Positions 15,659 through 61,100 of a stretch of DNA of 64,000 nt are shown piece after piece (the first letter of the stretch is position 1; every line of letters starts with the position of its first letter). The notes beneath the pieces were generated by a model. The model was given only the letters and a program-made list of their open reading frames with translations. It did no database searches and was not told the origin of the DNA. This stretch comes from Hysterangium stoloniferum (Eukaryota > Basidiomycota > Agaricomycetes > Hysterangiales > Hysterangiaceae): positions 805,655 through 869,654 of the forward strand of contig WHVD01000025.1 in NCBI GenBank assembly GCA_015178975.1, in the 5' to 3' direction. Made by a program: the position numbers and the translations under genes.

Positions 15659-16402
15659 ATGAAGCCAGACTGGATGGAAGAGTCCTTTGGATGGGCAGAA
15701 GACAAGGAAGACAAGGAAGACAAGGAAGACAAGGAGGACAAGCAAGACAAGCAAGACAAGCAAGACAAGCAAGACAAGCAAGACAAGGAGACAAGGAAGA
15801 CAAGGAAGGACAAGGAAGACAAGGAAGACAAGGAAGACAAGGAAGACAAGGAAGACAAGGAAGACAAGGAAGACAAGGAAGACAAGGAAGACAAGGAAGA
15901 CAAGGAAGACAAGGAAGACAAGGAAGACAAGGAAGACAAGGAAGACAAGGAAGACAAGGAAGACAAGGAAGACAAGGAAGACAAGGAAGACAAGGAAGAC
16001 AAGGAAGACAAGGAAGACAAGGAAGACAAGGAAGACAAGGAAGACAAGGAAGACAAGGAAGACAAGGAAGACAAGGAAGACAAGGAAGACAAGGAAGACA
16101 AGGAAGACAAGGAAGACAAGGAAGACAAGGAGGACAAGGAGGACAAGGAGGACAAGGAAGACAAGGAAGACAAGGAAGACAAGGAAGACAAGGAAGACAA
16201 GGAAGACAAGGAAGACAAGGAGGACAAGGAGGACAAGGAGGACAAGGAAGACAAGGAGGACAAGGAGGACAAGGAAGACAAGGAAGATGACACAGGGTTC
16301 TCTGCCATTTTGGGTGGGATGGAGAATGGCTTCCAGACCAATGAGCTTGATGAGCATATAATGACAGGGCCATTCACTGATTCTTCTGATGAGGATGATT
16401 GA
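15659..16402 (+). CDS. Doubtful ORF made mostly of EDK repeats
   Basis: 247 codons: a short head ([16 protein letters not shown]), about 65 Glu-Asp-Lys repeats with a few Gln variants, and an acidic tail ending FTDSSDEDD. The repeat has no stop in any of the six frames, so openness is not evidence of coding. The non-repetitive tail (about 38 residues, acidic) looks somewhat protein-like and could be the end of a real exon. No family is recognised. I treat it as a minisatellite that may sit in a degraded gene. Confidence 0.2.
15703..16287. repeat. 9-bp minisatellite (GACAAGGAA)n
   Basis: About 65 units of GACAAGGAA, with GACAAGCAA variants at 15740-15790 and GACAAGGAG variants at 16130-16270. 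The variants are clustered, showing local spread of new unit types. Confidence 0.95.
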
Positions 16403-19496: not shown

Positions 19497-20506
19497 TCAC
19501 AGAAGATTTTCAGGTTCACACCAAGAAATTTTGTGCAAGTCAATTATTAAAAAAAATAAAAAATCCAAGAAAAGGCATTCCAGATGATGAATTGGAACTT
19601 CCAGAGACAAAATGAATTCTTGGAGAAGGTAATGGTCAGTATCTATGGTATCTCTGAGGAGCCTGATACTGGCATCACCTTCTACACTCAGCTCTACAGT
19701 TTCCAAAGGCTTGGTTGTTTCCAAGGTTTCTGCAACTGCTATTTTTTCTGCCTTTTTGACCTTTTGGAGTCCACTTCATGGCAAGAGTGCATGGAATTTT
19801 GTTTACTGCACATAGGTAACAGGTTCTGCCCCATTTTACCTTCTGTCTCCAACAAGTAATGCCCTGACTCACACATTGCTGACATGGAACTTCATGGGCA
19901 GTCTCCATACATTCCAGAGCCCTGGTCTTTTGTTTTGGTTTTGGATATTTAGTTATTTTCCAGAACTCTTACAAATTACTTACTTAGGACTCAAAGGCCC
20001 AGCCTCTTCCTCCTCATCCACTTCATCGGCTTTCCACTGTTGTTTTTCCATTATTGAAGACACATGGAAGTTTACTGGTTCACTTACCTTTCCATCCCAT
20101 TTCTCTTTCCATCCCATTTCTCTTTCCATCCCATTTCTCTTTCCATCCCATTTCTCTTTCCATCCCATTTCTCTTTCCATCCCATTTCTCTTTCCATCCC
20201 ATTTCTCTTTCCATCCCATTTCTCTTTCCATCCCATTTCTCTTTTAGCCTCTACTCTTCTGCCTTGGCATCCTGCCATTTCTTTTCCACCTCATCCCACA
20301 GCCTCTGATCCTCTGCTATGTTCCAAAACCATTCCCTCCTCTGCTCCTCCTTCTCTTTCTCCACCTTAACATGCTCCAACTCATGTTTTTCCACCTCTTC
20401 CACCTCTCTCAACTCCTGCATTAACTCTTTCACCTCCTCCTCTTGTTGTTGCCTTATGTACCTTCTCTATCCTCTGTTATTTGCATTGAAGTTCTTCAAC
20501 TTTTGA
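19497..20506 (-). pseudogene. Gypsy-A antisense accessory ORF (coiled coil + Zn2Cys6-like), decayed
   Basis: On the strand opposite to pol, in order: a Glu/Lys-rich helix (20433-20251; ELREVEEVEKHELEHVKVEK), a 17-bp minisatellite reading as Lys/Trp/Glu/Met repeats, an acidic linker (DEVDEEEEAG), then a cysteine cluster at 19908-19675. The cluster pattern is C-x2-C-x6-C-x10-C-x2-C-x6-C (CQQCVSQGITC, then CYLCAVNKIPC). A helical tail at 19724-19497 ends it. Frames change between pieces, so it is dead. Gypsy-C carries the same ORF at the same place (47605-48604). The spacing fits the fungal Zn(II)2Cys6 DNA-binding cluster. Function in the element is unknown. Confidence 0.6.
20092..20243. repeat. 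17-bp minisatellite
   Basis: Nine head-to-tail copies of CCATCCCATTTCTCTTT, nearly identical. Because 17 is not a multiple of 3, the reading frame rotates and each frame gives a 17-residue protein repeat. Confidence 0.95.
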
Positions 20507-20704
20507 CATTTCAGCAATTTTGGCTTCTGAATCTTCCAGAGTGATGGTAAATAAAGGATGATGAATTGACATGCAAGTCATGGTTAAAGAAAGAAAAATT
20601 GCTATTTGAATATTTGGAAGTTTTTATACTCAGATCAGCAGCCAAAACTCTCCACTTCCAAACAGTTCAACGCTCAGTAGCTAATCACCTTTATGGGACT
20701 TCAG

Positions 20705-21128
20705 TGTTATGACCAGAATTCCCGCCGGACTCCGGGCACTAACTTATATGCACCTGCACCCTATACACACCAATTGTCAGTTTACCAGAATTCCTGCCAG
20801 ACTCTGTACATCAGAGTTGTCCACGTTCGACTTTGTTACATTGTGTATCAGTCACCCACTGGACTCTGTCCCTGTCTATGTCTGACCTCGTCCCACGCAT
20901 CAGTCACCAGACCCTGCTCGGAAAACCCGTCATCTCTCTAACTGAGCCCCATTCCCATTTTAGTCAAATGACCTGTCACGATTTGGACTCTGCTCCCACT
21001 CCGTTTCCTGTTATGGTTTATGATTTGTCATGATTTGGACTCCACTCCGTTCTGTCGCATCTATCTCTCTTATTTATCTCGACTCCCAACCTCTCAACCC
21101 ACGACCTCTGACCTACGATCCCTTGACC
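20705..21128 (+). repeat. Damaged fam3 LTR
   Basis: Starts TGTTATGACCAGAATTCCCG and follows the fam3 LTR, for example at 41334 onward. It lacks about 240 internal bases near 21052 and its own 3' end. An imperfect direct repeat of about 33 bp (CTCAGTA-CTAATCACCT-TATGGGACTTCAG) flanks it on both sides. Confidence 0.75.
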
Positions 21129-37342: not shown

Positions 37343-39197
37343 TCAGTACTTGGTATAGCCACCCTTTGCCTTCAACACAGCTGCAACCTGTTAAGGAGTG
37401 CACAGAGCTTATCAGAGGGTTTCCAGAGAAACCCATGGGAAAGCCAGTAGGACTTGGCTTCAGCTTATAGGCTGCACCCTCGCAAGATTGTGTTGTCCAA
37501 TTTCAGACAGGTGGACGGGAATCCCGGGGCATCCGGGAGTAGTTGGTGGGTTGAGAGGTTGGGTGGTGATGGATCAGAGGTTGAGCAATAGATAGGTCAG
37601 AGCCCATAGGCTCCAATGAGATAAATAGTGGTGTGTTTCACAGAGAGGGATAGAGTGGGAAATATAATGAGATTACTGGGGGAAATCTAAGCTGAAAACT
37701 TAGTTGATTTTCTGGCCAGATTGTATGTACAACATTAGCTAGTTTATATAGACTGCAGAGTATATGCAATACCAAATCCAGTAATAATGAGATCCAAACA
37801 AGTAATCATGAAAGGAGATAAGTAAACACCAAATTTGGGGTTAGGAACAGAATGGAACAGAGTGGAGTCCAAAACGTGACAGGTCATTAGACCAAAATGG
37901 GATTGGGGCAGGAGCAGAGTCTGAAATGTGACAGGTCATTTGACCATAATGGGAACAGGGATCAGATAGAGAGCTGATGGGTTTTCCGAGAAGAGTCTGG
38001 TGGCTGATGTGTGGGACAGGGTCGAGAATAGACAGGGATGGCGTGTATGGGGTCTGGGCAGGTATTCCGGTGACTGGTACATGAGATAACGAAAGGTTGG
38101 GCATGGACAGGTCTGATGTCTGGGTTCTGGCGGGTATTCCAGTAAACTGATAATTGGTGCATAAAGGGTGCAGGTGCATATATAGTAATGCCCGGAGTCC
38201 AGCGAGTTTTCCAGTCATGACACAACACTCCTAGGCATACTCTCAATCAAATTCTGACACACCTCTGCATCAATCTTGTTCCACTCCTCCTCCACCCTTT
38301 CCCACAACTCCAGTATCTCTTTTGGTTCAACCTCATACTCTCCCAGCCTCTTCTTGATATGATCCTACAAGTGTTCAATGGGGTTGAGGTCTGGAGACTG
38401 TGCTGGCCATGGGAGGACATTGAAATTATTATTTTGAAACCAAGTCTGGGCCTTCTTGCAAGTATGCTTGGGGTCATTATCTTGCTGGAAGATGACATCA
38501 TCCACAGATTTTCCATAATAGTTGAAGCTGGCTTGAAGGTCCCCCTCCATAATCTTGAGATAAAGGTCTCCATTAATTCTCCCATCTATCTTGCAAGCAT
38601 ACCCAGGTCCTTCCCACAGCATGCACCCCCTTACCATCATAGATCCTCCTCCAAACTTCTGAGTCCCCTGAACCAGCCTGTTACTCAAGCCCTCCCCAGT
38701 CTTTTTCCAGGCCCACTTCCTCCCATCTGACCCAACCTGTTGATTTTGGTTTCATCAGACCACACCACCTTCTTCCAGTCCTCAACAGTGCAATTCTGAT
38801 GTGCTATAGCAAAGTCCATCCTTGCCTTCTTATGCTTCTTGCTAAGAAGGGGCTGTTTCTTCTTTATCACACCCTTCATCCCAACCATCTTGAGATGATT
38901 GCACACAGTTTGGGTAGAAATGGACTAGTTGGTGAGATTCCTAAGGGCTTTGGTCACATCAACAGCAGTGTCAGCCTTCCCAGAGCTGATGAGACACTGT
39001 GCATAGTGAATGTTGGTAGGGGAAAGCTTTGGGGGATGACCACCAATGGACTTAGGGAGATGAGAACAATGCTTAGAGCAAAGCTTTGAGACTGTGCCAA
39101 TGCTATGACCAGTAGAAACTGCAATGTGGCTAGCTGAATGACCAGCATCAAGCAGTGAGAGGATATGATTCTGGCTGGCAAGAGACAAAGTGTGCAT
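37343..39197 (-). pseudogene. Tc1-2 transposase remnant, cut by a fam3 LTR
   Basis: Starts near ATG 39197 (MHTLSLASQNHILSLLDAGH). It continues with VWSDETKINRLG, FQQDNDPKHTCKKA and SPDLNPIEHL, so the DDE residues are still visible. Stops occur after ALRNLTN, after the Gly-rich stretch near 38690 and after NPIEHL. The fam3 LTR at 37389-38222 lies between MPRSVV and VAAVLKAKGG. The frame ends at 37343. Confidence 0.85.
37389..38222 (-). repeat. fam3 solo LTR inside the Tc1-2 transposase
   Basis: 834 bp. On the minus strand it starts TGTCATGACTGG and ends ACTCCTTAACA. It is flanked by CAACC and CAACA, a 5-bp target duplication with one change. Reading across the duplication restores the transposase frame locally. 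Confidence 0.85.
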
Positions 39198-39799
39198 CTT
39201 GGGAATTGGGGTATTACTAGTTGCTAAAGGTGATATATTTATACTCCAGTACAACATGTTCATGTGACATCACGTGATTTTGTTGATATGAACCTAATTG
39301 GAGGTAAACAATCAACAAGGTCACATGACTATAAGTATTTATAGTCATCAAAGTTGCCAACAAAAAAAAACCCTTCACATAAGTCTCTTGTATATAAATA
39401 TTTCTAATATTTCCATATTTGGAGCTTATGTAATGGCACCATACTTCCATAATCTAGATATGATAGAGTATATTCACAAATATTCTTGATATTTTTGCAT
39501 TTTTATTATTTGAGTTATCAGGGATATAAGTCTGAAGTACAAAACATGCAAAGGGTTTTTTGAGTCACTGTATTTGGTAACTTGTCCATTGACAAGTATT
39601 CATTCATTTGTTTGTTATGTTCCTAATTCAGAACTTCTATCCTAATCCATTCTTATTGTGATCCCAATCTGTAATACAATAGCCAGAGGATCTATATTAA
39701 TTTCCATGCATTTGTACTTACATCTTAGATCTGATATTGACCCGGTTAGCTTATTTCTCTTCTCTTTCTGTATACTCAATATTTGAAACTCTTTGGAAC

Positions 39800-41333: not shown

Positions 41334-42165
41334 TGTTACGACTGGAATTCCTGCCAGACTCCAGGCACTAACTTATATGCACCCACACACTATACACACC
41401 CATTGTCAGTTCACCGGAATTCCCGCCAGACTCCATACATCAGACTTGTCTACGTTCAACTTCATTACATCATGTATCAGTCACCAGAATTCCCGCCAGA
41501 CTCCGTCCCTGTCTATGTATGTCCGACCTCATCCCATGCATCAGTCACTGGACCCCGCTTGGAAAACCCATCATCACCCTAACTAAGCCCCATTCCCATT
41601 TTAGTCAAATGACCTGTCACGATTTGGACTCCGCCCCCACTCTGTTTCCCATTATGGTTTATGATTTGTCACAATTTGGACTCCACTCTGTTCTGTTCCA
41701 TTTCTAACACCAAATTTGGTGTTTACTATTCTTGTTTTATGTTTTGCTAGTTTCGTTTCATTATTACTGGATTTGGTATGTTATTCATTCCATGGTCTAT
41801 ATAGTCTGGCAGATGTTGTACATACAATCCAGTCAGAAAATCGGCTTAGATTCCCCCCAGTAATCTAATACCTTTTCTGCTCTAAACTCCTCCTTGAATC
41901 ACACTGCTCTTGCTAGTTGGAGCCCACGGGCTCCGATGCATCTATCTCTCTTATTTATCTTGGCTCCTGACCTCTCGACCCACGACCTCCGACCTACGAC
42001 CCCTCGACCCACAAACCCCACCCAGACTCCCTGGGATTCCCATCCGCCTGTCTGAAATTGGACAACACGATCTCACAAGGGCGCAGCCTATAAGCTGAAG
42101 CCAAGTCCTACCAGATATCCCACGGGTTTCTCCAGAAACCCACCGTGTACATACCCACCCTAACA
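41334..42165 (+). repeat. fam3 solo LTR
   Basis: 832 bp from TGTTACGACTGG to CCACCCTAACA, flanked by the exact 5-bp duplication CAAAT (41329-41333 and 42166-42170). It contains the CCAGTCAGAAAAT motif and the U5 block. Confidence 0.95.
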
Positions 42166-46564: not shown

Positions 46565-47394
46565 TGTTAGGATACACACACAGGCCGGGTTTCCGGAGAA
46601 ACCCGCGGGATATCCGGTAGGACTTGGCTTGAGCTTATAGGCTGCGCCCTCGCTAGATCATGTTGTCCAATTTCAAATGGACGGACAGGGATCCCGGGGA
46701 GTCCGGGCGGGGTTCGTACGTCGTAGGTTGTAAGTCAGGGGTTGTGGGTTGTAAGTCGAAGGTCGTGGGTTGTAAGTCGAGATAGTTGAGAGAGATAGAT
46801 GTGCTGGAGCCCGTGGGCTCCGACTAGTGCGAGCGATGTGAATCAAGTAAGGTTTTAGAGCAGAAAATGTTATTGGATTACTGGGGGGAATCTAAGCTAA
46901 TTTTCTAACTGGATTGTATGTACAACATCTGCCAGTTTATATAGACCATGGAGTGAATGACATACCAAATCCAGTAATGGCGAAACGAAACTAACAAAAC
47001 ATGAAACGGGAATAGTAAACACCAAATTGGTGTTAGGAACGGAGCGGAGTCCGAATCGTGACAAAGCATAACCCATAACGGGAAATGGAGCGGGAGCGGA
47101 GTCCTAAATCGTGACAGGTCATTTGACTAAAATGGGAACGGGGCTCAATTAGAGTGGTGACGGGATTCTAAGCGGGATCCGGTGACTGATGCGTGGGACG
47201 AAGACGGACATAGACAGAGACGGAGTCCGGGGGAAGTCTGGTGACTGGTGTGTGTTGTATTGAGGTTGAACGTAACTAGTCTTGACGTGACGGAGTCTGG
47301 GTGGGAAATCCTATAAACAGACGATTGGTGCTTGGAGCGCATGGGGGCGTACGGGTTAGTGCCCAGAGTCTGGCGGGATTGTCCGGTCGTAACA
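46565..47394 (-). repeat. fam3 LTR (3' LTR of Gypsy-C)
   Basis: 830 bp. On the minus strand it starts TGTTACGACCGG and ends GTGTGTATCCTAACA. It contains imperfect 19-21-bp repeats of GTGGGTTGTAAGTCG near 46725-46790. Confidence 0.92.
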
Positions 47395-47397
47395 GTA

Positions 47398-47407
47398 TCC
47401 TCCCTTT
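47398..47407 (-). promoter_or_regulatory. Polypurine tract of Gypsy-C
   Basis: AAAGGGAGGA on the minus strand, three bases before the 3' LTR; the expected plus-strand primer site. Confidence 0.6.
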
Positions 47408-47604
47408 ATGCCGAAGCCCCAAAGAGGCTCTAGACCTAGATAAGGTTCTTGTCGGCTACACGCATGTGTCAAAAGTCATGTCGGTTACATGTATGTGTCA
47501 AAGAGTCATGTGATCTGGAAGGTAAGGTTCAAATGCGACGAGCCTATATATAAATTTGAAAAAATACAAATTTCTTCTTCTTTATTACCCCCATCATTGA
47601 TAGC

Positions 47605-48604
47605 ATGGGACCAAAGCCCATGCTGCACAAGCCTACGCCAACCGCTGGGCCCTCCACACGCAGTGAGTATCAGGCACCACTCTCCACTGCCCAAATCTTG
47701 GCGGAGCGGGATGAGCAATGGTGACAGCGAGAAGAGGTGGAACGAGAAGCCCGGGAGGTTGAGGAGGCCCTGAATAGGGAATACCAGGCAGCCATGGCTG
47801 CAGAGGAAGAGGCTGTGAGGCAGAAGCAGAGGGAGGAGGAGGAGGCTGCGCGAGTGGCCACGGAGAAGGCCAGGGTAGTGGCAGAGAAAGCCCAGGTGGC
47901 TGTGGAGAGAGTCGCAGTAGTTGCAGGGAAGGTAAGTCCCATAGTTTCAACTTGTCGCTTTTTTTTGACTTGGCATTTTCAGCGCAAGGTGGCGGAAGTC
48001 AAGTTGGAGTCCGAGGGGGAGCCAGAGAGCCCAACAAGGTGAGTCTCGGGTCCGTGGGTATACTGTGGAGCTAACCGTATCAACAGAAAGCAAGGAAGGC
48101 GGCGCCAGTCCGCCTACCGACTCGGAACGACCCGCAGTGTTCTGGTTGTAATGACTGGAACACTGAGTGCAATTGGAAGTCCAGCCGGGCCTGGGGTGTT
48201 ATCAGTGCGTGCACCTCAAGGTGAGGTGCTCGCTTGTTCACGAGCAGGCCACGGGGTCGGGTTCACGGGAGAATAGCGGGTCGGATGGGTACCCCAGTTT
48301 GGAAGAAGCCTTGGGACAGATTGCCGAGGGCATTGAAGCCCAGAACGAGTTGCTCCGGAAGAGCAACAAAGTCAGCATCATTATGGCGAATGATCTCCGT
48401 GCAATCCGTGGGGACCACTTCAAGTTCCTGATGGAGTATGCCAGCTTTGTATATGACAAGCTGGAGGACGGGAGTTCCAAGGAGGCCGGGTCAGATGAGG
48501 AGGAGGTGCCTGTGGAGATCGCGGAGCTACCCGAGGAGATGAATGAGGTGGGAAAAGCTGAGGTGGAAAAGAGGCAGGGAAAAAAGATAGCCCCATCAAT
48601 GTAG
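47605..48604 (+). pseudogene. Gypsy-C antisense accessory ORF (coiled coil + Zn2Cys6-like), lightly damaged
   Basis: Strand opposite to gag-pol, tail-to-tail with pol. ATG 47605 opens MGPKPMLHKPTPTAGPSTRS. A TGA at 47722-47724 interrupts a long charged Ala/Glu/Arg coiled coil (EREAREVEEALNREYQAAMA onward). Two small introns fit GT-AG (47932-47982 and 48039-48086). A cysteine cluster follows, CSGCNDWNTEC then CYQCVHLKVRC about nine residues later, that is C-x2-C-x6-C-x9-C-x2-C-x6-C. Frame changes occur just before it and within its linker. A helical tail (LEEALGQIAEGIEAQNELLR) and an acidic end stop at 48604. Gypsy-A carries a relative at the same location. The spacing fits the fungal Zn(II)2Cys6 cluster, so DNA binding in the nucleus is the natural guess. 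The 3' LTR lies 210 bases upstream and may supply the promoter. Confidence 0.65.
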
Positions 48605-48814
48605 ATGAAGAATAGAAGTAAAAACTTAATAATAATTTGAACATAAAGTAAAGCGTGAAAAACATAAAAAATAAAAGTCAAAGCCAAAGTCCACGGAGAG
48701 TCCGCTTAAAGACTTGACAAGACATGTCAGAACCTGTAAAAGCAAAGAGAGACATAGGGTGACAGGGAATAATGAAAATGAGTCCAAACGTAACACGGGG
48801 TCAGCGGAGTGCGG

Positions 48815-51800
48815 TTAGAGAGAAGATAATGGTCCAGGTTTGAGTGGGTAAGCTGTATGAAAGTCAGTAACGATTTCCATGGCATTACCGAGTTCCGTGG
48901 CCAAAATCCATGAGTTCTCTTCAATGGTGCCCTCGTAACCCGCCCACTTGACCAAGTAAAGCAGTTTACAAGTGCGTTGACGCTTATCAATTTTTGAATC
49001 TAAAATCTGTGAGATTTCAAACTTGGGTTCTCCGTCAATAACGACAGGAGGATGCGGAGATTGCACGCGATCCGGGATAGTGTTAGCAGTACAAGGTCCT
49101 AACATAGAAACATGAAATACCGGGTGTACCGCGCACATGCTATCCGGAAGCTGTAGAGTCCAAGAAACTGAACCTACTTGTGCGATAATTTCAAACGGGC
49201 CTAAATATTTTTCAGCAAGCTTCTTTGATGGACGGGTAGTCCGGAAGAATTGAGCTTTGACATAAACACGGTCGCCAATCTTGAAGTTGGGTGGTGGGAT
49301 CTGGTGTTTGTCCGCTGAATGTTGGTATTGCTCTTGGGCAGACAATATTGCAGTCCGGAGTTCCTCGTGGAGCTCGTGGAGGTCCATGGTGAACTCTTGA
49401 GCGCGAACAGAGGCGAGATTTCGTTCTGGATGTACTGTAATATTTGGATTATATCCTTTATTTGCAAAGAATGGGGAAATGCCAGTAGTGGCCGAAGGTG
49501 CATTGTTGTAAGCAAACTCTGCAAGTGGTAACAAGGTCTTCCAATTGTCCTTTTGGTAGTTGCAATATACGCGGAGGTATTGTTCCAATGTCTGGTTGAC
49601 GCGTTCGCTTTGTCTGTCACCTTCCGGATGATGTCCGGACGTGAAATGTAATGTCATGTCCAAGGATTTTCCGAGGGATCTAAAGAAGTGAGACACGAAC
49701 TCTGATCCTTGATCGGAAGTCACATGGGACGGAACTCTGTGCTTGGAAAATACATGGATAATAAAAGGTTCCGCTAGCTGCACGGACGTAATTGTATCAT
49801 AAGTAGGGATGAATATACCTTGTTTTGAGAATCTGTCAACAACGACTAGAATAGCAGAAAAGCCTTCGGAATCCGGTAGGTGTTCAATGAAATCCATAGA
49901 TATAGAATTCCACAGGTGTTCCAGTACCGGGAGTTGTTTCAAAAGGCCGTATGGCTTGTGTCGCTGAGATTTCGAGTGGGGACAAGTAGTGCAAGATTTA
50001 CAATAGTGCTTAACGAATCCACGGAGTCTGGGCCAAGTGTATTCTCTTCTTATTAATGATAGAGTTTTGTTGTACCCGAAATGTCCTGAGGGTGGATGAT
50101 CATGTTTGTATTGAAGGATCCTGAGGTGGAGGCTGTCGGAGTCCGGTACATAGATGCGATCGTCAAGCCTAATGAAACCATGTTGATCAAGAGACCACCG
50201 AGGTTGATCGGGGTCCACGGGATTGTCCAGATGAGCTTTAGTAACTGGGTCTAGCGGAATTGCCGATAGAATATCTTGATGTAACTTCTCGATATCCATA
50301 ATGGTAATTCCATGGACAATGGGATTGACGAGGAAAGTTGCGCGGACCGATGCGGTAAGCTGTTGATTCGTGAAAATAGGTTTCAGGGTGTGCAGATTTA
50401 CCGTTGCATAGTCGTTGCTCCCCTCTTTAGGATAGACGTCCCATTGTCTAGTTAAAGCGTCGGGTTTGCCGCTGAGACGGTCGGGTCGAAAGCGGATAAT
50501 CATGTTGAAAGCAGATAGATATTCAGACCAGCGGGCCTGCCGGTGGGTCAAAAGTTTTGTGGTAGAAAAGTATTCCAGGTTTTTGTGATCTGTTACAACG
50601 TCAATAGGAGCTCCTGAACCTTCCAAATAGTGTCGCCATGCTTTGAAAGCTGAGAATATTGCCAGAAGTTCTTTATCATGAATGTCGTAGTTGAGCTCTG
50701 CTCCGGTAAAAGTCCGGGACAGAAAAGCCACGGGGTGGACTTCTCTGTCGGAGTCCTGGATAGACAGAATGGCTCCAAGTGCATAATCCAAGGCATCCAT
50801 TTCAACAATGAGCGGGAAGTCCGGTTTCCAATGCAACAGAATAGGAGCTGTAGAAAAAGAATTTTTAAAAGATTGAAAGCTTTTTGACACTTATCATTAA
50901 AATTCCACGGAGTACCCTTACGTGTAAGATGGGTAAGGGGTACCGTGATGTTGGAATATCCATGGATAAAACATCTGTAAAAATTGGCAAAGCCGAGGAA
51001 GGATTGTATATCTTTAACTTTTCGGGGTTCGGGCCAATCTTTGATGACTTGTACTTTAGTTTCATCCATTCGGAGTCCATCAGGTCCTATCATGACACCT
51101 AGGTATTCCACAGAGTCCATGTCAAAAGTACATTTTTTACCATTTGCGAATAAACCATGTTGTCTGAGCCTCTGGAGAACTTCACGGACTTGTTTGTCGT
51201 GTTCCGCAGGATTCTCGGAGTAGATAAGAATGTCATCCAAGTAAACAATGACGCATACATCGAGCATGTCGGAGAAAATGTCGTTGATAAAATGCTGAAA
51301 AACAGATGGAGCATTGGTGAGTCCAAAGGGGATCACCAACCACTCAAAGGCCCCATAATGGGTTCTAAAAGTGGTTTCCCATTCATTGCCCGCGGCGATC
51401 CAGACCAAATGATAGGCATGCTTGAGATCTATTTTGGTGTAAATCTGGGCATTCCACGGAGCATCGAGCAGATCAGATATAAGTGGGAGTGGATATTTAT
51501 CCTTTTTGGTGACAGCATTGAGTCCTCTAAAATCAACACAAAGTCGAAGGGATCCATCATTTTTTCTGACAAACAGAACAGGTGCTCCAAAAGGAGACTT
51601 TGAGGGTCGGATAAAACCTATGGACAAATGTTCATACAGGAAATCACGGATTGCGGATAGTTCCATGGACGAAAGCGGGTAAATATGTCCTAGGGGTGGC
51701 TGGGCGCCATCTTCAAGATCGATTTTTAAGTCGTATTCTCTGTGAGGCGGAAGCCGGTCAGCTTTTCGCTTGCTAAAAACATCCGTGAAGTCATGATATT

Positions 51801-52530
51801 TCTCCGGGACACCTTCTAGGTCAGCGGCTTGCTCAGATTCAGATACTGGGGTTGAAAAACATCCAGTTGCTTCATCAATTTTTAAGTTGATAGTGAACAC
51901 CTGGGACCCATCCATTTTTGAAGCCCTAATAAAAGCTGCAGCATTAATCAGAGAAATGGACGGAGGTGCCGTGGGTTCTGGGGAAGCCATTGGTGCCGTA
52001 GGGATCACAGGAGTCCTCGAGACTGTAGGTGCCGGGAAGGCCATGGGTGCCGTGGAGGCCGGGTCGGGCACAGTTTCCTCGGCCACCATGGGAGTCTGGA
52101 ATGTTATACTGTTAGCTATCCAGTCAATCAATGGATTGTAGCGGGTAAGCCAGTTATGTCCTAGGACCACCGAGCAACTTGAGTCTAACTGGGTCACATA
52201 GAAAGTGACCAATTGAGATGTTCCACAAGGGAAATTGATGGGTAAATCACAAGCTTGGGTAACAACCGAATTACTTGTGCCATCGAAGAGGCGGAGTGCG
52301 ACGGGATTTATCGAATAAGTTGACAAAGAATTTTTTTGTGTGAATTTTGTATCTAAAAAACAATGAGTTGAGCTGGAATCTATGAGAGCTGAAAAAACGA
52401 ATTTTGGAATCATATTAGACATAAGTTTAATGAAAAATGAATCAGAATGTGAAAGAGCGGATGCGTTGAGGCGAGTGAACTCTTGAATGTGTGGAGAGGC
52501 AACGCAACCCCTAACCCGCACGGAGTCCAT
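48815..52530 (-). pseudogene. Gypsy-C pol (protease, RT, RNase H, integrase, chromodomain), one frameshift
   Basis: Two open pieces, 52530-50593 and 50890-48815, continue one another; a single missing base at about 50880 (after CQKAF) breaks pol. In order: protease near 52390 (ALIDSSSTHCFLD, where DSG would be usual), RT with YLDDILIYS near 51240, RNase H (DALDYALGAIL) near 50800, and the integrase zinc region (H...H...CKSCTTC) near 50000. The DDE core follows, with MDFIEHLPDSEGF, SDQGSEF and SERVNQTLE (49880-49590). A chromodomain (LLYLVKWAGYEGTIEENSW) near 48930 and a stop at 48815 end it. Pol lies in the -1 frame after gag. Apart from the one frameshift it looks recently active. Confidence 0.92.
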
Positions 52531-52538
52531 GGGGTTGC

Positions 52539-53831
52539 TTACTCTTTTTTCGAGTCAGAAGCCAGTTTGTCCTTTGACAGGGTTTCCATGGAGGCCTTGG
52601 CTGTTCGACCCTTTGAAGAGTTTGCTTTTGCCAGCGGACATTCCAGGACTCGATGACTGGGTTTCCCGCACAAGAGACAGAGGTTGTTGTCCATACGACG
52701 TTGTCTTTCTTGTGGAGTCAATTTGCCATCGGGTCCGAGTTTGCCTGAGAGGTCGGGTTTTCCGGCTTGCTTGCCGGACTGTTGACCCTTGTTGTTGTCC
52801 TTATTGTCCTTATTGTTGTTGTTGTTTGAAGACTTTTTATCGTTCTTCTTGTCGGATTGGGTGGAGTTCTGGTTGCTGGTTGATGAATTATTGTTATTGT
52901 TTTTATTGTCCTTGGACCTGTTTACTTTGTCCGTGGAGGTCTCGCAGGCAACTTCTGCGCGACGTTCCCAATAACGTGCGTCTGCATTTTGAGCTTTGAG
53001 GTGCATACGGGACAGGGTTTTTGGCTTGCCATCTTCTCCTTTTGAGACTTCGCCTTTAAGGCGGGACGGCAGACCGGCGTAGAATTGGTGGCGGAGAGCG
53101 GGATCGCCCCACTGACAACGAGCTGCAAGATTATTGAATTGGACGATGTAGTCCACAATGCACTGCGTGTCCTTCATACGAAGATTTGTGAGACTATTCT
53201 CGGCTTCTCCTGTCAGGTCATATGGGCTGAAGTTCGTTTCAAGCTCCTCAACAAAAGCCTCCCAATTTTCAAGCCAGAGCAGCTCTTCCTCGGAAATCCC
53301 GCTAAAAGCCGGTTCGAACCATTTCAACACAGATCCCGACAGATATGAAAGTGCATAGTTGACTTTTCGGGAGTCCGTGGAGAATGCAGCAGCACGATCA
53401 CGGAAGTTGAAGCGACATTGCAGGAGGAAAGTAGAGAGTTTGTTTGGGTTGGAACCCGTGAAGGGTTCCGGAGCATTGACTTTTGACCGTGGAGGTTCTT
53501 GTTCCTTTTTCTTTCGTTCTTCGAGCAGGTGCGTCATAAATTTATCTATAGTGCCTGCTAAAAATTCAGAAGTAGGATCCCCCAAGTGTGGTCGTTGAAC
53601 AGGCGGAGGATTTTCAAGAGGGATTTCGACACCTTTGCCCTTGTCGGGGGCCATGGAATCATCCTTGTGCTCGGATTCATCCTGGTTTTCCGGGACTTCT
53701 TCGATACGGGCTTCTTCCATGGTTTCCAACTGGTTCGCAAGTGTCTGACTGGTATACAGAGTTAACGGGGAATGAAGAGTCGACGGTCCAGATAATGATG
53801 ACTGTGCACGTGTACTTCTTCTTGGTGGCAT
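52539..53831 (-). CDS. Gypsy-C Gag, intact
   Basis: 430 aa from ATG 53831 (MPPRRSTRAQ). It forms the retrotransposon particle and binds the RNA. It has an acidic N-terminal region, a capsid-like part (PEPFTGSNPNKLSTFLLQCR, FRDRAAAFSTDSRKVNYALS, then NWEAFVEELETNFSPYD), an Asn/Lys/Ser low-complexity linker and a CCHC zinc knuckle (CLLCGKPSHRVLEC). It ends DSKKE two codons after an A6 run. Gypsy-B gag matches it throughout. The leader upstream is interrupted by the solo LTR-D, only 20 bases before the ATG, so expression from the 5' LTR is probably impaired. Confidence 0.92.
   Translation of the reverse strand: MPPRRSTRAQSSLSGPSTLHSPLTLYTSQTLANQLETMEEARIEEVPENQDESEHKDDSMAPDKGKGVEIPLENPPPVQRPHLGDPTSEFLAGTIDKFMTHLLEERKKKEQEPPRSKVNAPEPFTGSNPNKLSTFLLQCRFNFRDRAAAFSTDSRKVNYALSYLSGSVLKWFEPAFSGISEEELLWLENWEAFVEELETNFSPYDLTGEAENSLTNLRMKDTQCIVDYIVQFNNLAARCQWGDPALRHQFYAGLPSRLKGEVSKGEDGKPKTLSRMHLKAQNADARYWERRAEVACETSTDKVNRSKDNKNNNNNSSTSNQNSTQSDKKNDKKSSNNNNNKDNKDNNKGQQSGKQAGKPDLSGKLGPDGKLTPQERQRRMDNNLCLLCGKPSHRVLECPLAKANSSKGRTAKASMETLSKDKLASDSKKE
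52545..52551 (-). promoter_or_regulatory. Candidate -1 ribosomal frameshift site in Gypsy-C
   Basis: Gag frame reads TCG AAA AAA GAG TAA. A -1 slip on G AAA AAA leads straight into the open pol frame. Gypsy-B has A AAA AAA at the same place. Confidence 0.45.
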
Positions 53832-54438
53832 AATGAAAACAATCTGCTAGTGTGATGTATTAGCCTTATTTTAATACTATTTTCCGAAAAAGGAGTCCAA
53901 TGCTCTATCAAAATGTGCAAATACTCAATTCACTGCAAGGTAAAATAATTTAAGTATTTGATATTAATCAGTGGCAGCCTAAATAGACTTAGAACCCCTG
54001 AAGTCAAGAGTTTACTTGAATATATGCACCCTACTTCGCAAAGAAGGTTTTGAGAGCTGCTTGTGCAAGCTTGTTCTTTTTCTGTAAAAACACTACTAAA
54101 ATATGAATAACAATTCACTGATTCCGAAACTAGATTCGACTTCGATTCTAGCTAGTTTATATATATTTTATACTATTTATCAAACAGTAAAAATATTTAT
54201 AAACAGGTCAAAAGATTAGATATAGAATAAAACGCTATTTGGCTAATATATGCTTTATTTACACTAACCTACAGGGTCTACTGTGATACTAACTTATCAG
54301 GATCTTAATGTAGTCTTAAGGATTCTGCAAGAATATTCTCAGTATTTATTTATGCCAAAAACCGGGTAGAAATTAGAATATATGTATTTCTAATCTCAAT
54401 ATAACCTAAAATATTTATTACTTTAACTGATAACCAAC

Positions 54439-54672
54439 AACTCAACTAGAGGTGGATTAGTAATAAAGGATAGCCAGCTACTCAACTAAGAGGTGGCAAA
54501 AGAGGAACAAGTTGTTTGTCAGAAGCTCAACTAGAGGTGACAAGGGGGTAGGATTATTACCAGAAGCTCAACTAGAGGTGGCAAAGGGATCCTGAGATAG
54601 CTTAGGTCAGCAGCTCAACTAGAGGTGACTAAGTGTTTGTATATATTTATCCAACAGCCCAACTAGGGGTGG
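54439..54672. repeat. Regularly spaced 16-bp motif array in LTR-D (solo copy)
   Basis: Six copies of AGCTCAACTAGAGGTG-like sequence start near 54439, 54481, 54524, 54565, 54612 and 54657, a period of 40-47 bases. The spacers differ from each other. Confidence 0.85.
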
Positions 54673-54989
54673 AATATTACTGCTGATGCAGTGGCACACT
54701 GATGTGGTGTAGTAAATGGGTTAAAATGAGTTATATTTCAGTGGTGGAGCAGAGCTCCTTATATACAGTAAAATCTTAGACATGGGAGAATGTTCTAGCT
54801 ACTTGTTTTACCTATTTTTAGCTATTTTACCTGGAATCTGCTGGAATATTCCAGGAGTTTCTGCTACTTTCCATTGTAGCATATATGCTGATGTAATGTT
54901 CTCGCGCGTCGCGAAGTTGCTGATTTCGTGCGCGCGCTGATTACATAATTTTCCCGCGCGTGTCGCGTTTGTGACAAGTCGTCGCATTT

Positions 54990-55132
54990 TGTGACGACGG
55001 TCACTTGTTGTGACGACAGTCACTGTTGTGACGAATGTCACCGTTGTGACGAATGTCACCGTTGTGACGAATGTCACCGTTGTGACGAATGTCACCGTTG
55101 TGACGAATGTCACCTTTTGTGACGAATATTCC
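54990..55132. repeat. 18-bp palindromic minisatellite, short array
   Basis: About seven units of CGTTGTGACGAATGTCAC and its GACAG variant. Each unit contains the inverted pair GTGAC/GTCAC. Confidence 0.95.
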
Positions 55133-55386: not shown

Positions 55387-55397
55387 AGTCAGAAAAT
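55387..55397 (-). promoter_or_regulatory. Self-complementary primer-binding site of Gypsy-C
   Basis: Two bases inside the 5' LTR the transcript reads ATTTTCTGACT. This is the exact complement of AGTCAGAAAAT in the same LTR (plus strand ATTTTCTGACT at 55755-55765). Same geometry as in Gypsy-B. Confidence 0.65.
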
Positions 55398-55399
55398 AC

Positions 55400-56076
55400 T
55401 GTTAGGATACACACACAGGCTGGGTTTCTGGAGAAACCCACGGGATATCCGGTAGGACTTGGCTTCAGCTTATAGGCTGCACCCTCGCTAGATTGTGTTG
55501 TCCAATTTCAAACGGCGGACAGGGATCCCGGGGAGTCCGGGTGGGGTTCGTGGGTCGTAGGTGGTAAGTCGGGGGTCGTGGGTTGTAAGTCTAAGGTCGT
55601 GGGTTGTAAGTCGAAGGTTGTGGGTTGTAAGTCGAGATAGTTGAGAGAGATAGATGCACCGGAGCCCGTGAGCTCCGACTAGTGCGAGCGATGTGAATCA
55701 AGTAAGGTTTTAGAGCGGAAAATGTTATTAGATAACTGGGGGGAATCTAAGCTAATTTTCTGACTGGATTGTATGTACAACATCTGCTAGTTTATATAGA
55801 CCATGGAATGAATGACATACCAAATCCAGTAATGGTGAAATGAAACTAACAAAACATGAAACGGGAATAGTAAACACCAAATTGGTGTTAGGAACAGAAC
55901 AGAATGGAGCGGAGTCCGAATCATGACAAAGCATAACCCATAATGGGAAACGGAGTGGGAGCGGAGTCCTAAATTGTGACAGGTCATTTGACTAAAATGG
56001 GAACGGGGCTCAATTAGAGTGGTGACGGGATTCTAAGCGGGATCCGGTGACTGATGCGTGGGATGAAGACGGACAT
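55400..56076 (-). repeat. fam3 LTR (5' LTR of Gypsy-C), interrupted by Gypsy-D
   Basis: 677 of about 830 bp are present and match 46565 onward. Gypsy-D is inserted after GACAT (56072-56076), the left copy of its target duplication. The remainder should follow Gypsy-D outside the window. Confidence 0.9.
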
Positions 56077-56662
56077 TGTGATGTATTAGCCTTATTTTAA
56101 TACTATTTTCCAAAAAAGGAGTCCAATGCTCTATCAAAATGTGCAAATACTCAATTCACTGCAAGGTAAAATAATTTAAGTATTTGATATTAATCAGTGG
56201 CAGCCTAAATAGACTTAGAACCCCTGAAGTCAAGAGTTTACTTGAATATATGCACCCTACTTCGCAAAGAAGGTTTTGAGAGCTGCTTGTGCAAGCTTGT
56301 TCTTTTTCTGTAAAAACACTACTAAAATATGAATAACAATTCACTGATTCCGAAACTAGATTCGCCTTCGATTCTAGCTAGTTTATATATATTTTATACT
56401 ATTTATCAAACAGTAAAAATATTAATAAACAGGTCAAAAGATTAGATATAGAATAAAACACTATTTGGCTAATATATGCTTTATTTACACTAACCTACAG
56501 GGTCTACTGTGATACTAACTTATCAGGATCTTAATGTAGTCTTAAGGATTCTGCAAGAATATTCTCAGTATTTGTTTATGCCAAAAACCGGGTAGAAATT
56601 AGAATATATGTATTTCTAATCTCAATATAACCTAAAATATTTATTACTTTAATTTATAGCCA

Positions 56663-56898
56663 ACAACTCAACTAGAGGTGGATTAGTAATAAAGGATAGC
56701 CAGCTACTCAACTAAGAGGTGGCAAAAAGAGAACAAGTTGTTTGTCAGAAGCTCAACTAGAGGTGACAAGGGGGTAGGATTATTACCAGAAGCTCAACTA
56801 GAGGTGGCAAAGGGATCCTGAGATAGCTTAGGTCAGCAGCTCAACTAGAGGTGACTAAGTGTTTGTATATATTTATCCAACAGCCCAACTAGGGGTGG
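56663..56898. repeat. Regularly spaced 16-bp motif array in LTR-D (3' LTR)
   Basis: The same six CTCAACTAGAGGTG-type motifs as at 54439-54672, with the same 40-47 base period. Confidence 0.85.
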
Positions 56899-57221
56899 AA
56901 TATAACTGCTGATGCAGTGGCACACTGATGTGGTGTAGTAAATGGGTTAAAAATAAGTTATATTTCAGTGGTGGAGCAGAGCTCCTTATATACAGTAAAA
57001 TCTGAGACATGGGAGAATGTTCTAGCTACTTGTTTTACCTATTTTTAGCTATTTTACCTGGAATCTGCTGGAATATTCCAGGAGTTTCTGCTACTTTCCA
57101 TTGTAGCATATATGCTGATGTAATGTTCTCGCGCGTCGCGAAGTTGCTGATTTCGTGCGCGCGCTGATTACATAATTTTCCCGCGCGTGTCGCGTTTGTG
57201 ACAAGTCGTCGCATTTTGTGA

Positions 57222-57790
57222 CGACGGTCACTTGTTGTGACGACAGTCACCGTTGTGACGACAGTCACCGTTGTGACGACAGTCACCGTTGTGACGACAG
57301 TCACCGTTGTGACGACAGTCACCGTTGTGACGACAGTCACTTGTTGTGACGACAGTCACCATTGTGACGAATGTCACCGTTGTGACGAATGTCACCGTTG
57401 TGACGAATGTCACCGTTGTGACGAATGTCACCGTTGTGACGAATGTCACCGTTGTGACGAATGTCACCGTTGTGACGAATGTCACCGTTGTGACGAATGT
57501 CACCGTTGTGACGAATGTCACCGTTGTGACGAATGTCACCGTTGTGACGAATGTCACCGTTGTGACGAATGTCACCGTTGTGACGAATGTCACCGTTGTG
57601 ACGAATGTCACCGTTGTGACGAATGTCACCGTTGTGACGAATGTCACCGTTGTGACGAATGTCACCGTTGTGACGAATGTCACCGTTGTGACGAATGTCA
57701 CCGTTGTGACGAATGTCACCGTTGTGACGAATGTCACCGTTGTGACGAATGTCACCGTTGTGACGAATGTCACCGTTGTGACGAATATTC
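57222..57790. repeat. 18-bp palindromic minisatellite, long array
   Basis: About 31 units. The first block is the GTGACGACAGTCAC type, then the GTGACGAATGTCAC type. Open frames on both strands reading Thr-Val-Thr-Phe-Val-Thr or Cys-His-Arg-Cys-Asp-Glu are by-products of the 18-base period. Confidence 0.95.
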
Positions 57791-58147: not shown

Positions 58148-61100
58148 TTAGTGTTTTAGATAGTTCTTGGCCCGGTGTGTCATTTCCCAGGCTCTCAAGA
58201 TCTCTGGCGCATTTTTTAGATCTCTTCGGGTTAACCATTCATCAAAATTAGGTGAGTACCCTACGAATCTTACTTTATATAATAAATTCTTGCGACCGCT
58301 TCGGGATTTTGACCATTTTTGGTCAATTATTGCCTCGACTTCATATTCAGGCATTTCTTCAAAATCTTCCCGGTTCAGATGCTTTCTCGGTCGACTTCCG
58401 AATTCTTCTGGTGAGTTTTGGTAAGATTCTAAATGCGCAATATTTAGAATTGGGTGAGTGCCGTATGAAGCTGGCATTCGCAGTCTATATGCTAACCGAC
58501 TTATTTTCTCTAGAATCTCGAACGGTCCGTCATACTTCATTAATAACTTTTGGCCTTTTCCTTTCACATTTCGCAATAGGTTTAAGGAATGGGGATTTAT
58601 TAGCACTAAATCTCCCACTTCAAATTGAATGGTGAGTCGTCCCTGATTATAATACTTCTTTTGGAAAATCTGACCCAGATTAAGCGCCTCTCTCGCTATA
58701 CTGCGGTTTGCCTGAAACTCTTCGATCATTTGGTCAGCGGCATCGCTTAATCCTTTAAACTTATGTGAGTCATTTGTTTCCGTATTTTCATCATTAATTA
58801 TCTCATTGTTTGGTCTTGTTACACCTTCCGGCTCTGGGGAAAGATAGTTGAGCCGCGTTAGAGGCTGGAAGCCAAACAACAAAAATGCCGGTGAGAATTT
58901 CGTTATAGAATGAACACTAGTGTTATATGCTAACGAAAAACTATCTAAAATTTTAGCCCAATCGTTTCGTTCTGGCCCAACGTAAGCTCTAAGCGCTACT
59001 TCGAGGATTTGGTTCATTATTTCGGTTTGACCATCCGCTTGTGGATGATAGGCCGTGGTAAGTGCTCTTTTTATATTCAATTGAGCACATACTGACTCCC
59101 AAAATTTGCCTGTCCATTTCCGATCGCGATCCGATATAATTTGTCTCGGGAGGCCATAGTGTGTCACTATATGCTTGAACACTAAACGGCCGGTTTCTTC
59201 CTCATTGATGGTGGTTTTACAAGGTATGATAATTGCATATTTAGTTAATTTATCAACAATTACTAATATGTTATCAAACCCTTCGCTTTCCGGCAATTCC
59301 GGTATAAAGTCCATGGTAATGACTTCAAATGGCCGGGTTGGGATTGGGATAGTCTGTAAAAGTCCTATAGGTGCGTGTCTTCTTACTTTTGACTTTTGAC
59401 ATATATCACAAGTTCTCACATACTCTAGGATTGATCTCGACATTCGTGGCCAGTAGTAACCACTAGCAATCCGATTGTAAGTTTTATGATATCCTGCATG
59501 AGCGCCTTCACTTAGCTCATTATGGGCTTCACTTATAATCTCTAGATGCTTTTGTTTTGGTACACATAGACGTAATGTACCTAGAGAATCTTCATAATAT
59601 ATCAAATTGTCATTTCCTAATGAATATTGAGGGAATCTTGGGTTTTCCCAATTAGACTCAAGTTTTAAATTCTCTAAGACTTCTTGGAAATAGCTATCTC
59701 CTTGATATCCCTCAACAAATTCTCTTATTTCTTCATCTCCTATGCCAATTAACACACTATATGCATGTGTGCTATTATAGGGTAAGTCTATGCTTCCTAT
59801 ATTTGAGTTCTCTAGCTTAATATCTAAGCTTATTGCCTGCTCTGGCTGCTCAAACTCAAATTCAGTATTCTTTGAGCATAAGAACAATACTTCTGATTCA
59901 AATCCCGGTCCAATCTCTTCATAAAGATTTCCTAGTGAGTCTGTTTCATTCTCTTGTAACTCCACAGATTTAACTAAGTCTTTAATTGGACCATCTTCAT
60001 TGGGAAATCTTCTTCTAAGCCTTGATATTGGGTCTACATTTGAATGTACCCTTCCTGCTCTATGGACTATCTTCAAATCTGGATATGCTGCAAATACTGT
60101 TCCCCAGGTAAGTAATCTTCTGTTGATATTCTGGAAGGTTTTACTCCAGGTTAATGCAGCATGATCTGTGATTGCCCATATCTTTTCTCCTTCCAGGTAA
60201 GGCTGGAACTTTATCAAGCCATCTTTAAGTGCTAAAGCCTCCCTCTCTGTGGGGGAATAGTTCTTTTCAGCTGGCTTCAAAGTTCTTGACCAGTAAGCAA
60301 TCACTCTTTCAACATGAACAATTGTATCTTCAAAATTCTCAGCCCAATTACCATTCTCTGGTAGATCATCTCCTTCTTTACTTATTGATACAACTAACTG
60401 AGGTATCTTTTCTCCTTTATCATAGGCTAGTTTTAGCTTAGTGTAATTTTTAGTACCCAACAGATCTAATATCCTGATTGGTTGTACTTGTTGTAATATA
60501 GCTGCTATGCCAATATCACAAGCATCACTATAAACCCTATAGCCTAAACCTCTGATAGCATAAGCTCTAACTGGAGCTGAACTTAATGCCTTCTTTGCTA
60601 ACTCAAAGGCATTTCTTTGGGCCTCTCCCCAAGTCCATTTGACATCTTTTTTAAGCAACTGGAATAATGGATTAACTATCCAGGCATAAAATGGAATGTA
60701 AGCTGAAAAGTAAACCATCATTCCTAAGAACATTTGTAGCTCATGGACTGACTTGGGATTTTCTAATTGTACAATTGCTTCTACCTTCTCCTTATGAGTA
60801 GATAGTCCTAATCTTGAAACTTTCTGTCCTAGTAGTTTCAATGATTGATACCCAAAATGACATTTACTTGGAGATAATGTTATCTTAGACTTAATAATGG
60901 CTTTAAGTACTAAATCAACATGTTTCAAATGATCATTAAATGTCAAGGAGTATATCACTATATCATCAATATAGACTAATGCAAAAATCCATAAGAATGG
61001 TGCTAAAATATTTTGCATTACTCTTTGAAATACTGCCGGTCCATTTCTAAATCCAAATGGCATTCTCAAAAATTGAAATAAGCCTCTATGTGTCCTAAAG

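What the first reader, a model, noticed from the sequence alone, without database searches (positions are those of the whole stretch)
47605..48604. Antisense ORF with a Zn(II)2Cys6-type cluster inside a gypsy retrotransposon
Gypsy-C carries, between pol and its 3' LTR and on the opposite strand, an intron-containing ORF with a coiled coil and the pattern C-x2-C-x6-C-x9-C-x2-C-x6-C. This is the spacing of fungal transcription-factor clusters. A retroelement-encoded DNA-binding protein could control the element's own LTR, target choice or neighbouring genes.
Basis: partly seen in the sequence, partly recalled or inferred. Interest (0 to 1): 0.85.

Follow-up and report, generated by a model that had tools for sequence, protein, structure and literature searches.

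The report
Retrotransposon antisense zinc-cluster gene cassette
A jumping genetic element of a truffle-like fungus carries, on its opposite strand, a real intron-containing gene for a six-cysteine protein, and this gene differs strongly between copies whose other parts are almost identical, as if elements swap versions of it.

Summary
The antisense gene is real, but the window's own copy is dead. The host is Hysterangium stoloniferum. The gene occurs in two diverged chromodomain gypsy families, A (Gypsy-C) and B (a second element in this window). Both have a TATA box 55-60 nt before the ATG, three exons, two phase-0 introns and the same order of parts: charged helix, basic patch, C-x2-C-x6-C-x9/10-C-x2-C-x6-C, helix, acidic tail. 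Purifying selection is clear: dN/dS is 0.17-0.22 between A1 and A2, and all six cysteines persist at 22-30% protein identity between A and B. The Zn_clus profile does not decide membership: one of ten cysteine-preserving shuffles scores higher than the natural motifs. No homologue was found outside this species. Unexpected: subtypes almost identical in LTR, leader and pol carry strongly diverged versions of just this transcription unit. Of 82 transversions fixed between A1 and t3, 81 lie between the TATA box and the stop-codon region. The gene behaves as an exchangeable, divergent cassette. Antisense accessory genes are known (Boty brtn, Grande, Retand), so this is a new variant of a known kind. 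An element-encoded nuclear regulator is the best reading; expression, binding and target are untested.

The parts
46565..47394 (-). 3' LTR of Gypsy-C (element on - strand), ends TGTTA...TAACA
   Evidence: terminal motifs and repeat with the 5' LTR
47395..47410 (-). purine-rich stretch next to the 3' LTR, likely polypurine tract
   Evidence: sequence; inference
47453..47499 (+). two direct repeats CGGYT-N6-ATGTGTC upstream of the antisense TATA; a candidate regulatory site, similar word in the leader of family B
   Evidence: inference
47545..47553 (+). TATA box of the antisense gene, 60 nt before the ATG
   Evidence: inference from sequence
47605..47931 (+). exon 1 of the antisense gene (charged, coiled-coil-like); broken in this copy
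47932..47982 (+). intron 1, GT-AG in 30 of 30 loci
47983..48038 (+). exon 2
48039..48086 (+). intron 2, GT-AG in 30 of 30 loci
48087..48615 (+). exon 3: basic patch, six-cysteine motif, helix, acidic tail (family frame; disrupted here)
48138..48229 (+). six-cysteine Zn(II)2Cys6-like motif (disrupted here)
48815..52530 (-). pol of Gypsy-C: protease, RT, RNase H, integrase, chromodomain (two overlapping ORFs)
   Evidence: Pfam
52539..53831 (-). gag of Gypsy-C
   Evidence: Pfam
55396..56076 (-). part of the 5' LTR, 90.5% identical to the 3' LTR
19708..20572 (-). antisense gene of a second gypsy element (family B, element on + strand); broken; same exon layout; a later piece of the gene lies inverted at 19563-19655 (+)
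19789..19884 (-). six-cysteine motif of the family B gene

Best explanation
The region is a decayed copy of an accessory gene that these chromodomain Ty3/gypsy elements carry in antisense between pol and the 3' LTR. Shown by sequence: a TATA box in the leader between LTR and ATG, three exons, two phase-0 introns, conserved six-cysteine motif, purifying selection, two diverged element families. Inferred: it is transcribed from its own promoter towards pol and spliced. Its introns survive retrotransposition because the element's genomic RNA carries their complement and cannot splice them. The protein enters the nucleus by its basic patch, dimerises by its helices and binds DNA by a zinc cluster, most likely at CGG-containing repeats beside the antisense TATA or in the LTR, and so sets the element's own transcription. 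The gene is exchanged between element lineages as a cassette. Subtypes share an almost identical backbone but carry deeply diverged versions, as expected if a new version lets an element escape control by resident copies. The last step, escape, is the least certain.
For: Open spliced frame in 4 of 30 A1 loci, in the 4 t3 loci checked, 294 aa each, and in 2 of 5 family B loci spliced. GT-AG kept in 30/30 at both introns. Non-CpG variants: singletons N:S 106:45, variants shared by three or more copies N:S 23:51, Fisher p = 3e-8. dN/dS 0.17-0.22 in 4 A1-A2 pairs (dS 0.84-0.95) and 0.16-0.22 in 4 B pairs. Four of five other frames have pN/pS of 0.85 or more; the fifth mirrors third positions and contains stops. 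A against B: 22-30% identity in exon 3, all six cysteines invariant in 19 sequences, against 65% for 248 residues of the integrase C-terminus. Within A the zinc motif is the most constrained part, pN/pS 0.14 against 0.26-0.39 for six other parts. Cassette: fixed transversions, A1 against t3, 81 of 82 between TATA and just past the stop, 1 in 1265 nt of pol, 0 in LTR and leader. Same shape in all 6 comparisons of 4 types and, more weakly, in B.
Against: No RNA, binding or localisation data. At CpG sites shared and single variants do not differ in the way expected from selection (N:S 107:74 shared, 20:19 single); I set these aside as recurrent decay. Zn_clus profile not passed and not discriminating. 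Both structure models low confidence, zinc motif unresolved. The lysine that contacts DNA in classical clusters (recalled) is missing from the first half-cluster; one sits in the second half. LTR U3 type and gene type are not tightly linked: A1 and t3 share U3 but differ in gene, which speaks against version-specific LTR recognition. Divergence between versions is spread over the protein with dN/dS well below 1, so there is no direct sign of positive selection. No homologue found outside this species.
Confidence: 0.55

Rival explanations
1. The protein is an anti-silencing factor, as VANC proteins are for Arabidopsis VANDAL transposons: it binds repeats in non-coding parts of the element and lifts DNA methylation, and its versions diverge in an arms race.
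For: Copies show heavy change at CpG sites, which suggests methylation. A conserved pair of repeats lies in the non-coding leader. VANC proteins evolve different target spectra and their targets often form tandem repeats (abstract of PMC5735166).
Against: No homology to VANC was tested. The leader hardly changes between versions (leader transversions 0-1.7%), whereas VANC targets vary considerably between related elements (same abstract).
Confidence: 0.2
2. The cassette pattern is neutral mosaicism: a few template switches between old, diverged lineages placed different gene versions on one successful backbone, without selection for diversity. (This competes with the cassette part of the best explanation, not with the regulator part.)
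For: For A1 against t3 a single replacement event would suffice. dN/dS is below 1 in the pairs tested.
Against: All 6 comparisons among 4 types, and family B more weakly, are deep at the same place, with ends near TATA and stop; chance break points would scatter.
Confidence: 0.35
3. The protein helps integration rather than transcription: it guides or partners the chromodomain integrase.
For: Linked to chromodomain pol in family A and to the integrase C-terminus of family B.
Against: pol is nearly identical among elements whose antisense proteins differ strongly, so no co-variation.
Confidence: 0.08
4. Only the antisense RNA matters (for example as a source of small RNA); the ORF is incidental.
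For: Antisense transcripts of retroelements can act as RNA (PMC7264820 section 8).
Against: Codon-level purifying selection, kept splice sites and kept cysteines.
Confidence: 0.03

Closest known systems
[quoted passage not shown]
   Same: Place, orientation, presence in most copies, own promoter reported for Grande gene23, nuclear or DNA-binding role suspected (PMC7264820 sections 5, 7, 8; PMC11963269 abstract and discussion)
   Different: Fungal chromodomain element; six-cysteine motif; two conserved introns (the word 'intron' occurs in neither paper's text); divergent cassette on a uniform backbone
brtn of Boty-like retrotransposons in Botrytis cinerea (Zhao et al. 2011)
   Same: Antisense additional gene in a fungal gypsy element; a gag-pol with chromodomain is described for a Boty-like element (passages in PMC7264820, PMC8365987, PMC4227169)
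   Different: Ascomycete; the original paper (seen only as a citation) and its sequence were not read, so no comparison of proteins was possible
Fungal Zn(II)2Cys6 transcription factors (Pfam PF00172; PPR1, PDB 1pyi)
   Same: Cysteine spacing; a profile alignment places the motif on that of PPR1 with the six cysteines in register, though not significantly (E 2.7); helix and acidic tail follow
   Different: Profile score below cut-off and not better than shuffles; classical basic first half missing; encoded antisense in a retrotransposon
Ty1 copy number control and divergent gag of Ty1' (Czaja et al. 2020, PMC7055915, abstract)
   Same: A divergent module on an otherwise related retrotransposon, acquired by recombination, that matters for self-restriction
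   Different: There gag, sense strand, restriction shown; here an antisense gene, effect unknown
HTLV-1 HBZ (recalled; an HTLV antisense promoter is mentioned in PMC7264820 section 8)
   Same: Spliced antisense gene near the 3' LTR for a DNA-binding type regulator (recalled)
   Different: bZIP protein (recalled), promoter in the LTR; sequences not compared

Membership tests
Zn(II)2Cys6 binuclear cluster (PF00172) | C-x2-C-x6-C-x5-12-C-x2-C-x6-8-C (recalled) | tested here: met
   families A (x9) and B (x10)
Zn(II)2Cys6 binuclear cluster (PF00172) | Pfam gathering score 21 | tested here: not met
   natural motifs 12.5-14.6 bits; of two full proteins one 7.7 bits, one no hit; shuffles up to 17.2
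Zn(II)2Cys6 binuclear cluster (PF00172) | basic residues of the first half-cluster, Lys four after Cys2 (recalled) | tested here: not met
   Asn there in A and B; Lys four after Cys5 instead
Zn(II)2Cys6 binuclear cluster (PF00172) | two-zinc fold | tested here: inconclusive
   AlphaFold2 models mean pLDDT 51 and 53, motif unresolved
Zn(II)2Cys6 binuclear cluster (PF00172) | zinc and DNA binding | not testable with these tools
   needs protein
antisense additional ORF between pol and 3' LTR (aORF-3R) | position and orientation | tested here: met
antisense additional ORF between pol and 3' LTR (aORF-3R) | present in many copies with coding conservation | tested here: met
   (capped lists); the share of elements that lack it was not measured
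antisense additional ORF between pol and 3' LTR (aORF-3R) | transcribed from its own promoter | not testable with these tools
   TATA box present in A and B; no RNA held
brtn of Boty | homology to BRTN protein | not tested
   sequence not seen in the passages read
Ty1-like copy number control | version-specific self-restriction | not testable with these tools
   needs an experiment

The most novel reading that the evidence does not exclude
The antisense transcription unit is an exchangeable specificity module of a retrotransposon population, comparable to phage immunity regions. Each burst carries a deeply diverged version of a DNA-binding self-regulator (or anti-silencer) on an otherwise uniform, recombining backbone, with diversity kept because rare versions escape control by resident copies.
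Probability: 0.27. Interest if true: 0.92.

Novelty: new variant of a known kind. Interest (0 to 1): 0.74.

Why it matters
Antisense accessory genes of LTR retrotransposons have been described since the 1990s (citations in PMC7264820) and their function is still unknown. Here is one with a testable domain (six cysteines, CGG-containing repeats beside its promoter), clear codon-level selection and an evolutionary signature that separates it from the rest of the element. If the versions prove specific, retrotransposons would have an immunity-like module system of the kind known from phages. The introns also give a clean way to tell antisense mRNA from DNA and genomic RNA in sequencing data.

Tried and rejected
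Chance ORF: rejected by selection and splice-site tests. Pfam and PDB profile evidence for Zn_clus: not used as support, because shuffles score as well and the PPR1 match is not significant. Half-cluster order swap: rotated motifs scored 16.4 (A) and 13.3 (B) bits against 14.0 and 12.5 in natural order; too small to mean anything. Structure: two low-confidence models, not searched against fold libraries. Viral contigs: one scan with a family B exon 3, no relative. Public proteins: only three H. stoloniferum models, P0001-P0003, at E <= 10; none with family B. Those searches need shared 5-residue words and limit length, and transposon genes are often left out of annotation, so absence elsewhere is not shown. 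CpG decay as the cause of the divergent gene: rejected, because transversions show it.

Values that look contrary and why: within-A1, t4 and t7 pol values and the t4-t7 pol transversions (7.8%) are inflated by loci whose flanks leave the element (for example L011), which counts fixed differences, finds 0 in pol for t4-t7. In one search one reverse frame of the spliced A sequence is also free of stops in L057, but its pN/pS is 1.29-1.41. In family B two pairs show little excess (L061-L062 and L063-L066: third-position transversions 2.3% in the gene, 1.5% in pol). Rows dropped: one search drops segments covered below 60%; one search drops segments covered below 70% or differing by 45% or more; sites with fewer than 3 of 4 t3 or 20 of 30 A1 letters; sites covered in fewer than 60% of a type's loci; L065 pol and L063 LTR do not align in family B.

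Papers: searches (listings seen: titles and starts of abstracts); none listed a zinc-cluster antisense gene in a retrotransposon, nor one for Hysterangium.

Full report
What the window holds. The window is part of a 111-Mb genome in 554 contigs. Two annotated proteins of Hysterangium stoloniferum lie on contigs of exactly the lengths of contigs here (P0001: 1976920 = C334; P0003: 1501424 = C2), and P0001 matches C334 at 99% over residues 65-201. The host is therefore that ectomycorrhizal fungus (order Hysterangiales; PMC7550596, passage). Gypsy-C runs on the - strand: 3' LTR 46565-47394, pol 48815-52530 with protease, reverse transcriptase, RNase H, integrase and chromodomain, gag 52539-53831, partial 5' LTR 55396-56076, 90.5% identical to the 3' LTR. 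The antisense gene lies between pol and the 3' LTR, on the + strand.

The observation. In this copy the reading frame has an in-frame stop in exon 1 and several frame disruptions, one between the third and fourth cysteine. The pattern is nevertheless real in the family. A DNA search of the genome found 723 candidates, of which 40 were scored, at 83-88% identity apart from the window's own copy. Of the 30 loci cut out (the window's own included), 4 are open over 301-304 aa. Both introns keep GT and AG in 30 of 30. The six cysteines are the only ones of the majority frame, and 28 of 30 (first) and 30 of 30 (others) are kept by column.

Selection. Among variants outside CpG sites, those seen in one copy are N:S 106:45 (2.4:1), near what random change gives (2.7-3.8:1). 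Those shared by at least three copies are 23:51 (Fisher p = 3.2e-8). At CpG sites there is no such contrast (20:19 single, 107:74 shared); these sites decay repeatedly and were set aside. Shared changes mostly predate insertion, so the gene was under selection while the element multiplied. Pairwise dN/dS is 0.17-0.22 between subtypes A1 and A2 (dS 0.84-0.95), 0.16-0.22 for four pairs within family B (dS 0.35-0.64; three of the five B copies contain stops, those codons left out), and 0.17-0.44 within subtypes. Reading the same alignments in the other frames gives pN/pS of 0.85-2.12 in four frames; the fifth (0.32-0.35) shares third positions with the true frame and contains 3-9 stops.

A second family. 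A scan of the window for the motif in one frame found one case, at 19789-19884 (-), and none in 100 shuffles. [quoted passage not shown] That copy is broken too, and a later piece of its gene lies inverted. A genome search with 62 residues around it gave 433 candidates, 150 scored, many with about 220 open codons. Six stretches were read. Five could be spliced (two of them fully open) and show the same build as family A: TATA 55 nt before the ATG, exon 1 charged and helical, a short exon 2, exon 3 with basic patch, six cysteines and acidic tail, two phase-0 introns at matching places, though the second donor is less regular in two copies. Exon 3 of A and B is 22-30% identical, yet all six cysteines are invariant in the 19 sequences aligned. 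The integrase C-terminus of the window's B element is 65% identical to that of Gypsy-C over 248 residues. The gene is thus probably older than the split of the two families, or has moved between them.

Is it a Zn(II)2Cys6 protein? The spacing fits. The profile does not decide: natural motifs score 12.5-14.6 bits against a cut-off of 21, and of ten motifs with non-cysteine residues shuffled, two also hit, at 17.2 and 11.1 bits. A profile search of solved structures places the motif on PPR1 with the six cysteines in register, but at E 2.7. AlphaFold2 gave two poor models (mean pLDDT 51 and 53), with a long helix after the motif in B. Within family A the motif is the most constrained part (pN/pS 0.14 against 0.26-0.39 for the other six parts, one copy per type, 8 types). 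The lysine of the classical first half-cluster (recalled) is absent, and one occurs at the same place in the second half. I call it Zn(II)2Cys6-like, not a member.

The unexpected part. Comparing an A2 copy of type t3 (L057) with three A1 copies, identity is 92-94% in the LTR, 95-97% in the leader, and 95% in 1.2 kb of pol for two copies (83% for L019), but 75-81% in the exons and 58-83% in the introns (sliding windows). Most of gag-pol of a t3 element is 94.6% identical to the window's over 4142 nt. CpG decay cannot be the cause: third-position transversions are 11-16% in the gene and 1.3-1.6% in pol for five of the six between-type pairings tabulated (t3-t7: 11.6% and 5.0%), and A1-t3 pol transversions (0.7%) equal those within A1 (0.7%). 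Of 82 transversions fixed between 30 A1 and 4 t3 loci, 81 lie between the TATA box and just past the stop codon, 1 in 1265 nt of pol, none in 709 nt of LTR and leader. With looser rules, all six comparisons of four types show the same: 23-79 in 956-981 nt of gene, 0-5 in 1265 nt of pol, 0 in the leader. U3 of the LTR differs between two classes (A1 and t3 against t4 and t7; 4-9 fixed transversions in 263 nt), so U3 and gene type are not tightly linked. Family B shows a weaker version: third-position transversions are 2.3-6.8% in the gene (15 pairs of 6 loci) against 0-0.9% in the LTR (10 pairs that align) and 0-2.3% in 234-260 nt of pol (10 pairs that align). The antisense transcription unit, ends included, is therefore a cassette whose versions are much older than the backbone they sit on.

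How it most likely works. Shown: gene structure, selection, cassette. Inferred: antisense mRNA from the own TATA promoter; splicing; nuclear entry; zinc-dependent DNA binding; action on the element. The introns can persist because the genomic RNA of the element carries their complement and offers no splice sites. A candidate target is CGGYT-N6/7-ATGTGTC, twice in the A leader and once in the B leader at nearly equal distance from the LTR; 45 of 67 loci held carry it. A shared two-part word of this kind arose in 79 of 5000 shuffles, two or more matches to the A form with one mismatch allowed arose in 3 of 100 shuffles of the window, and I found it by eye, so it is a lead only. A self-regulator whose versions must differ to escape resident copies would explain deep versions on a uniform backbone. 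Ty1 offers a parallel, where a divergent gag acquired by recombination changes copy number control (PMC7055915, abstract). An anti-silencing factor like VANC (PMC5735166, abstract) is the main functional rival. Neutral mosaicism is the main rival for the cassette.

Known and new. [quoted passage not shown] their function is unknown and a regulatory role has been proposed (PMC7264820, sections 5, 7, 8; PMC11963269, abstract and discussion). New here, as far as I could see: a basidiomycete case, a six-cysteine motif, conserved introns, codon-level selection in two families, and cassette evolution. Protein searches found no relative outside this species, with the limits stated. Nine literature searches listed nothing of this kind.

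Noticed in passing
58262-61354 (-): A third gypsy pol, only 28-34% identical to that of Gypsy-C; no antisense six-cysteine gene was detected by tblastn.
   Followed up: partly
11575-14632 (-): A truncated gypsy fragment with gag 48% and most of RT 69% identical to Gypsy-C; its 3' end is missing, so an antisense gene cannot be looked for.
   Followed up: partly
19563-19655 (+): A piece of the family B antisense gene lies inverted inside the second element.
   Followed up: no
20705-21055: A piece of an LTR similar to one at 41334-41696 (84.6%) lies nested in the leader of the family B element.
   Followed up: no
53851-55125 and 56077-57352: A 1.28-kb direct repeat (97.9%) flanks the partial 5' LTR of Gypsy-C; perhaps another nested element.
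   Followed up: no
LTR U3 of L031-L060: Two U3 classes among family A elements (A1 and t3 against t4, t7 and others), only partly linked to the gene version.
   Followed up: partly
G000, hits: Many copies, a good part with identical scores, lie within a few kb of contig starts or ends, perhaps because recent identical copies break the assembly.
   Followed up: no
P0002: The annotated protein runs from exon 2 into the middle of exon 3 without the six-cysteine part; its exon 1-2 junction fits intron 1.
   Followed up: no
35397-36473 (+): A 358-aa ORF that looks like a Tc1/mariner-type transposase (recalled, not tested); similar fragments at 38247-39263 (-).
   Followed up: no
15659-16402: Long simple repeat open in several frames on both strands.
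   Followed up: no
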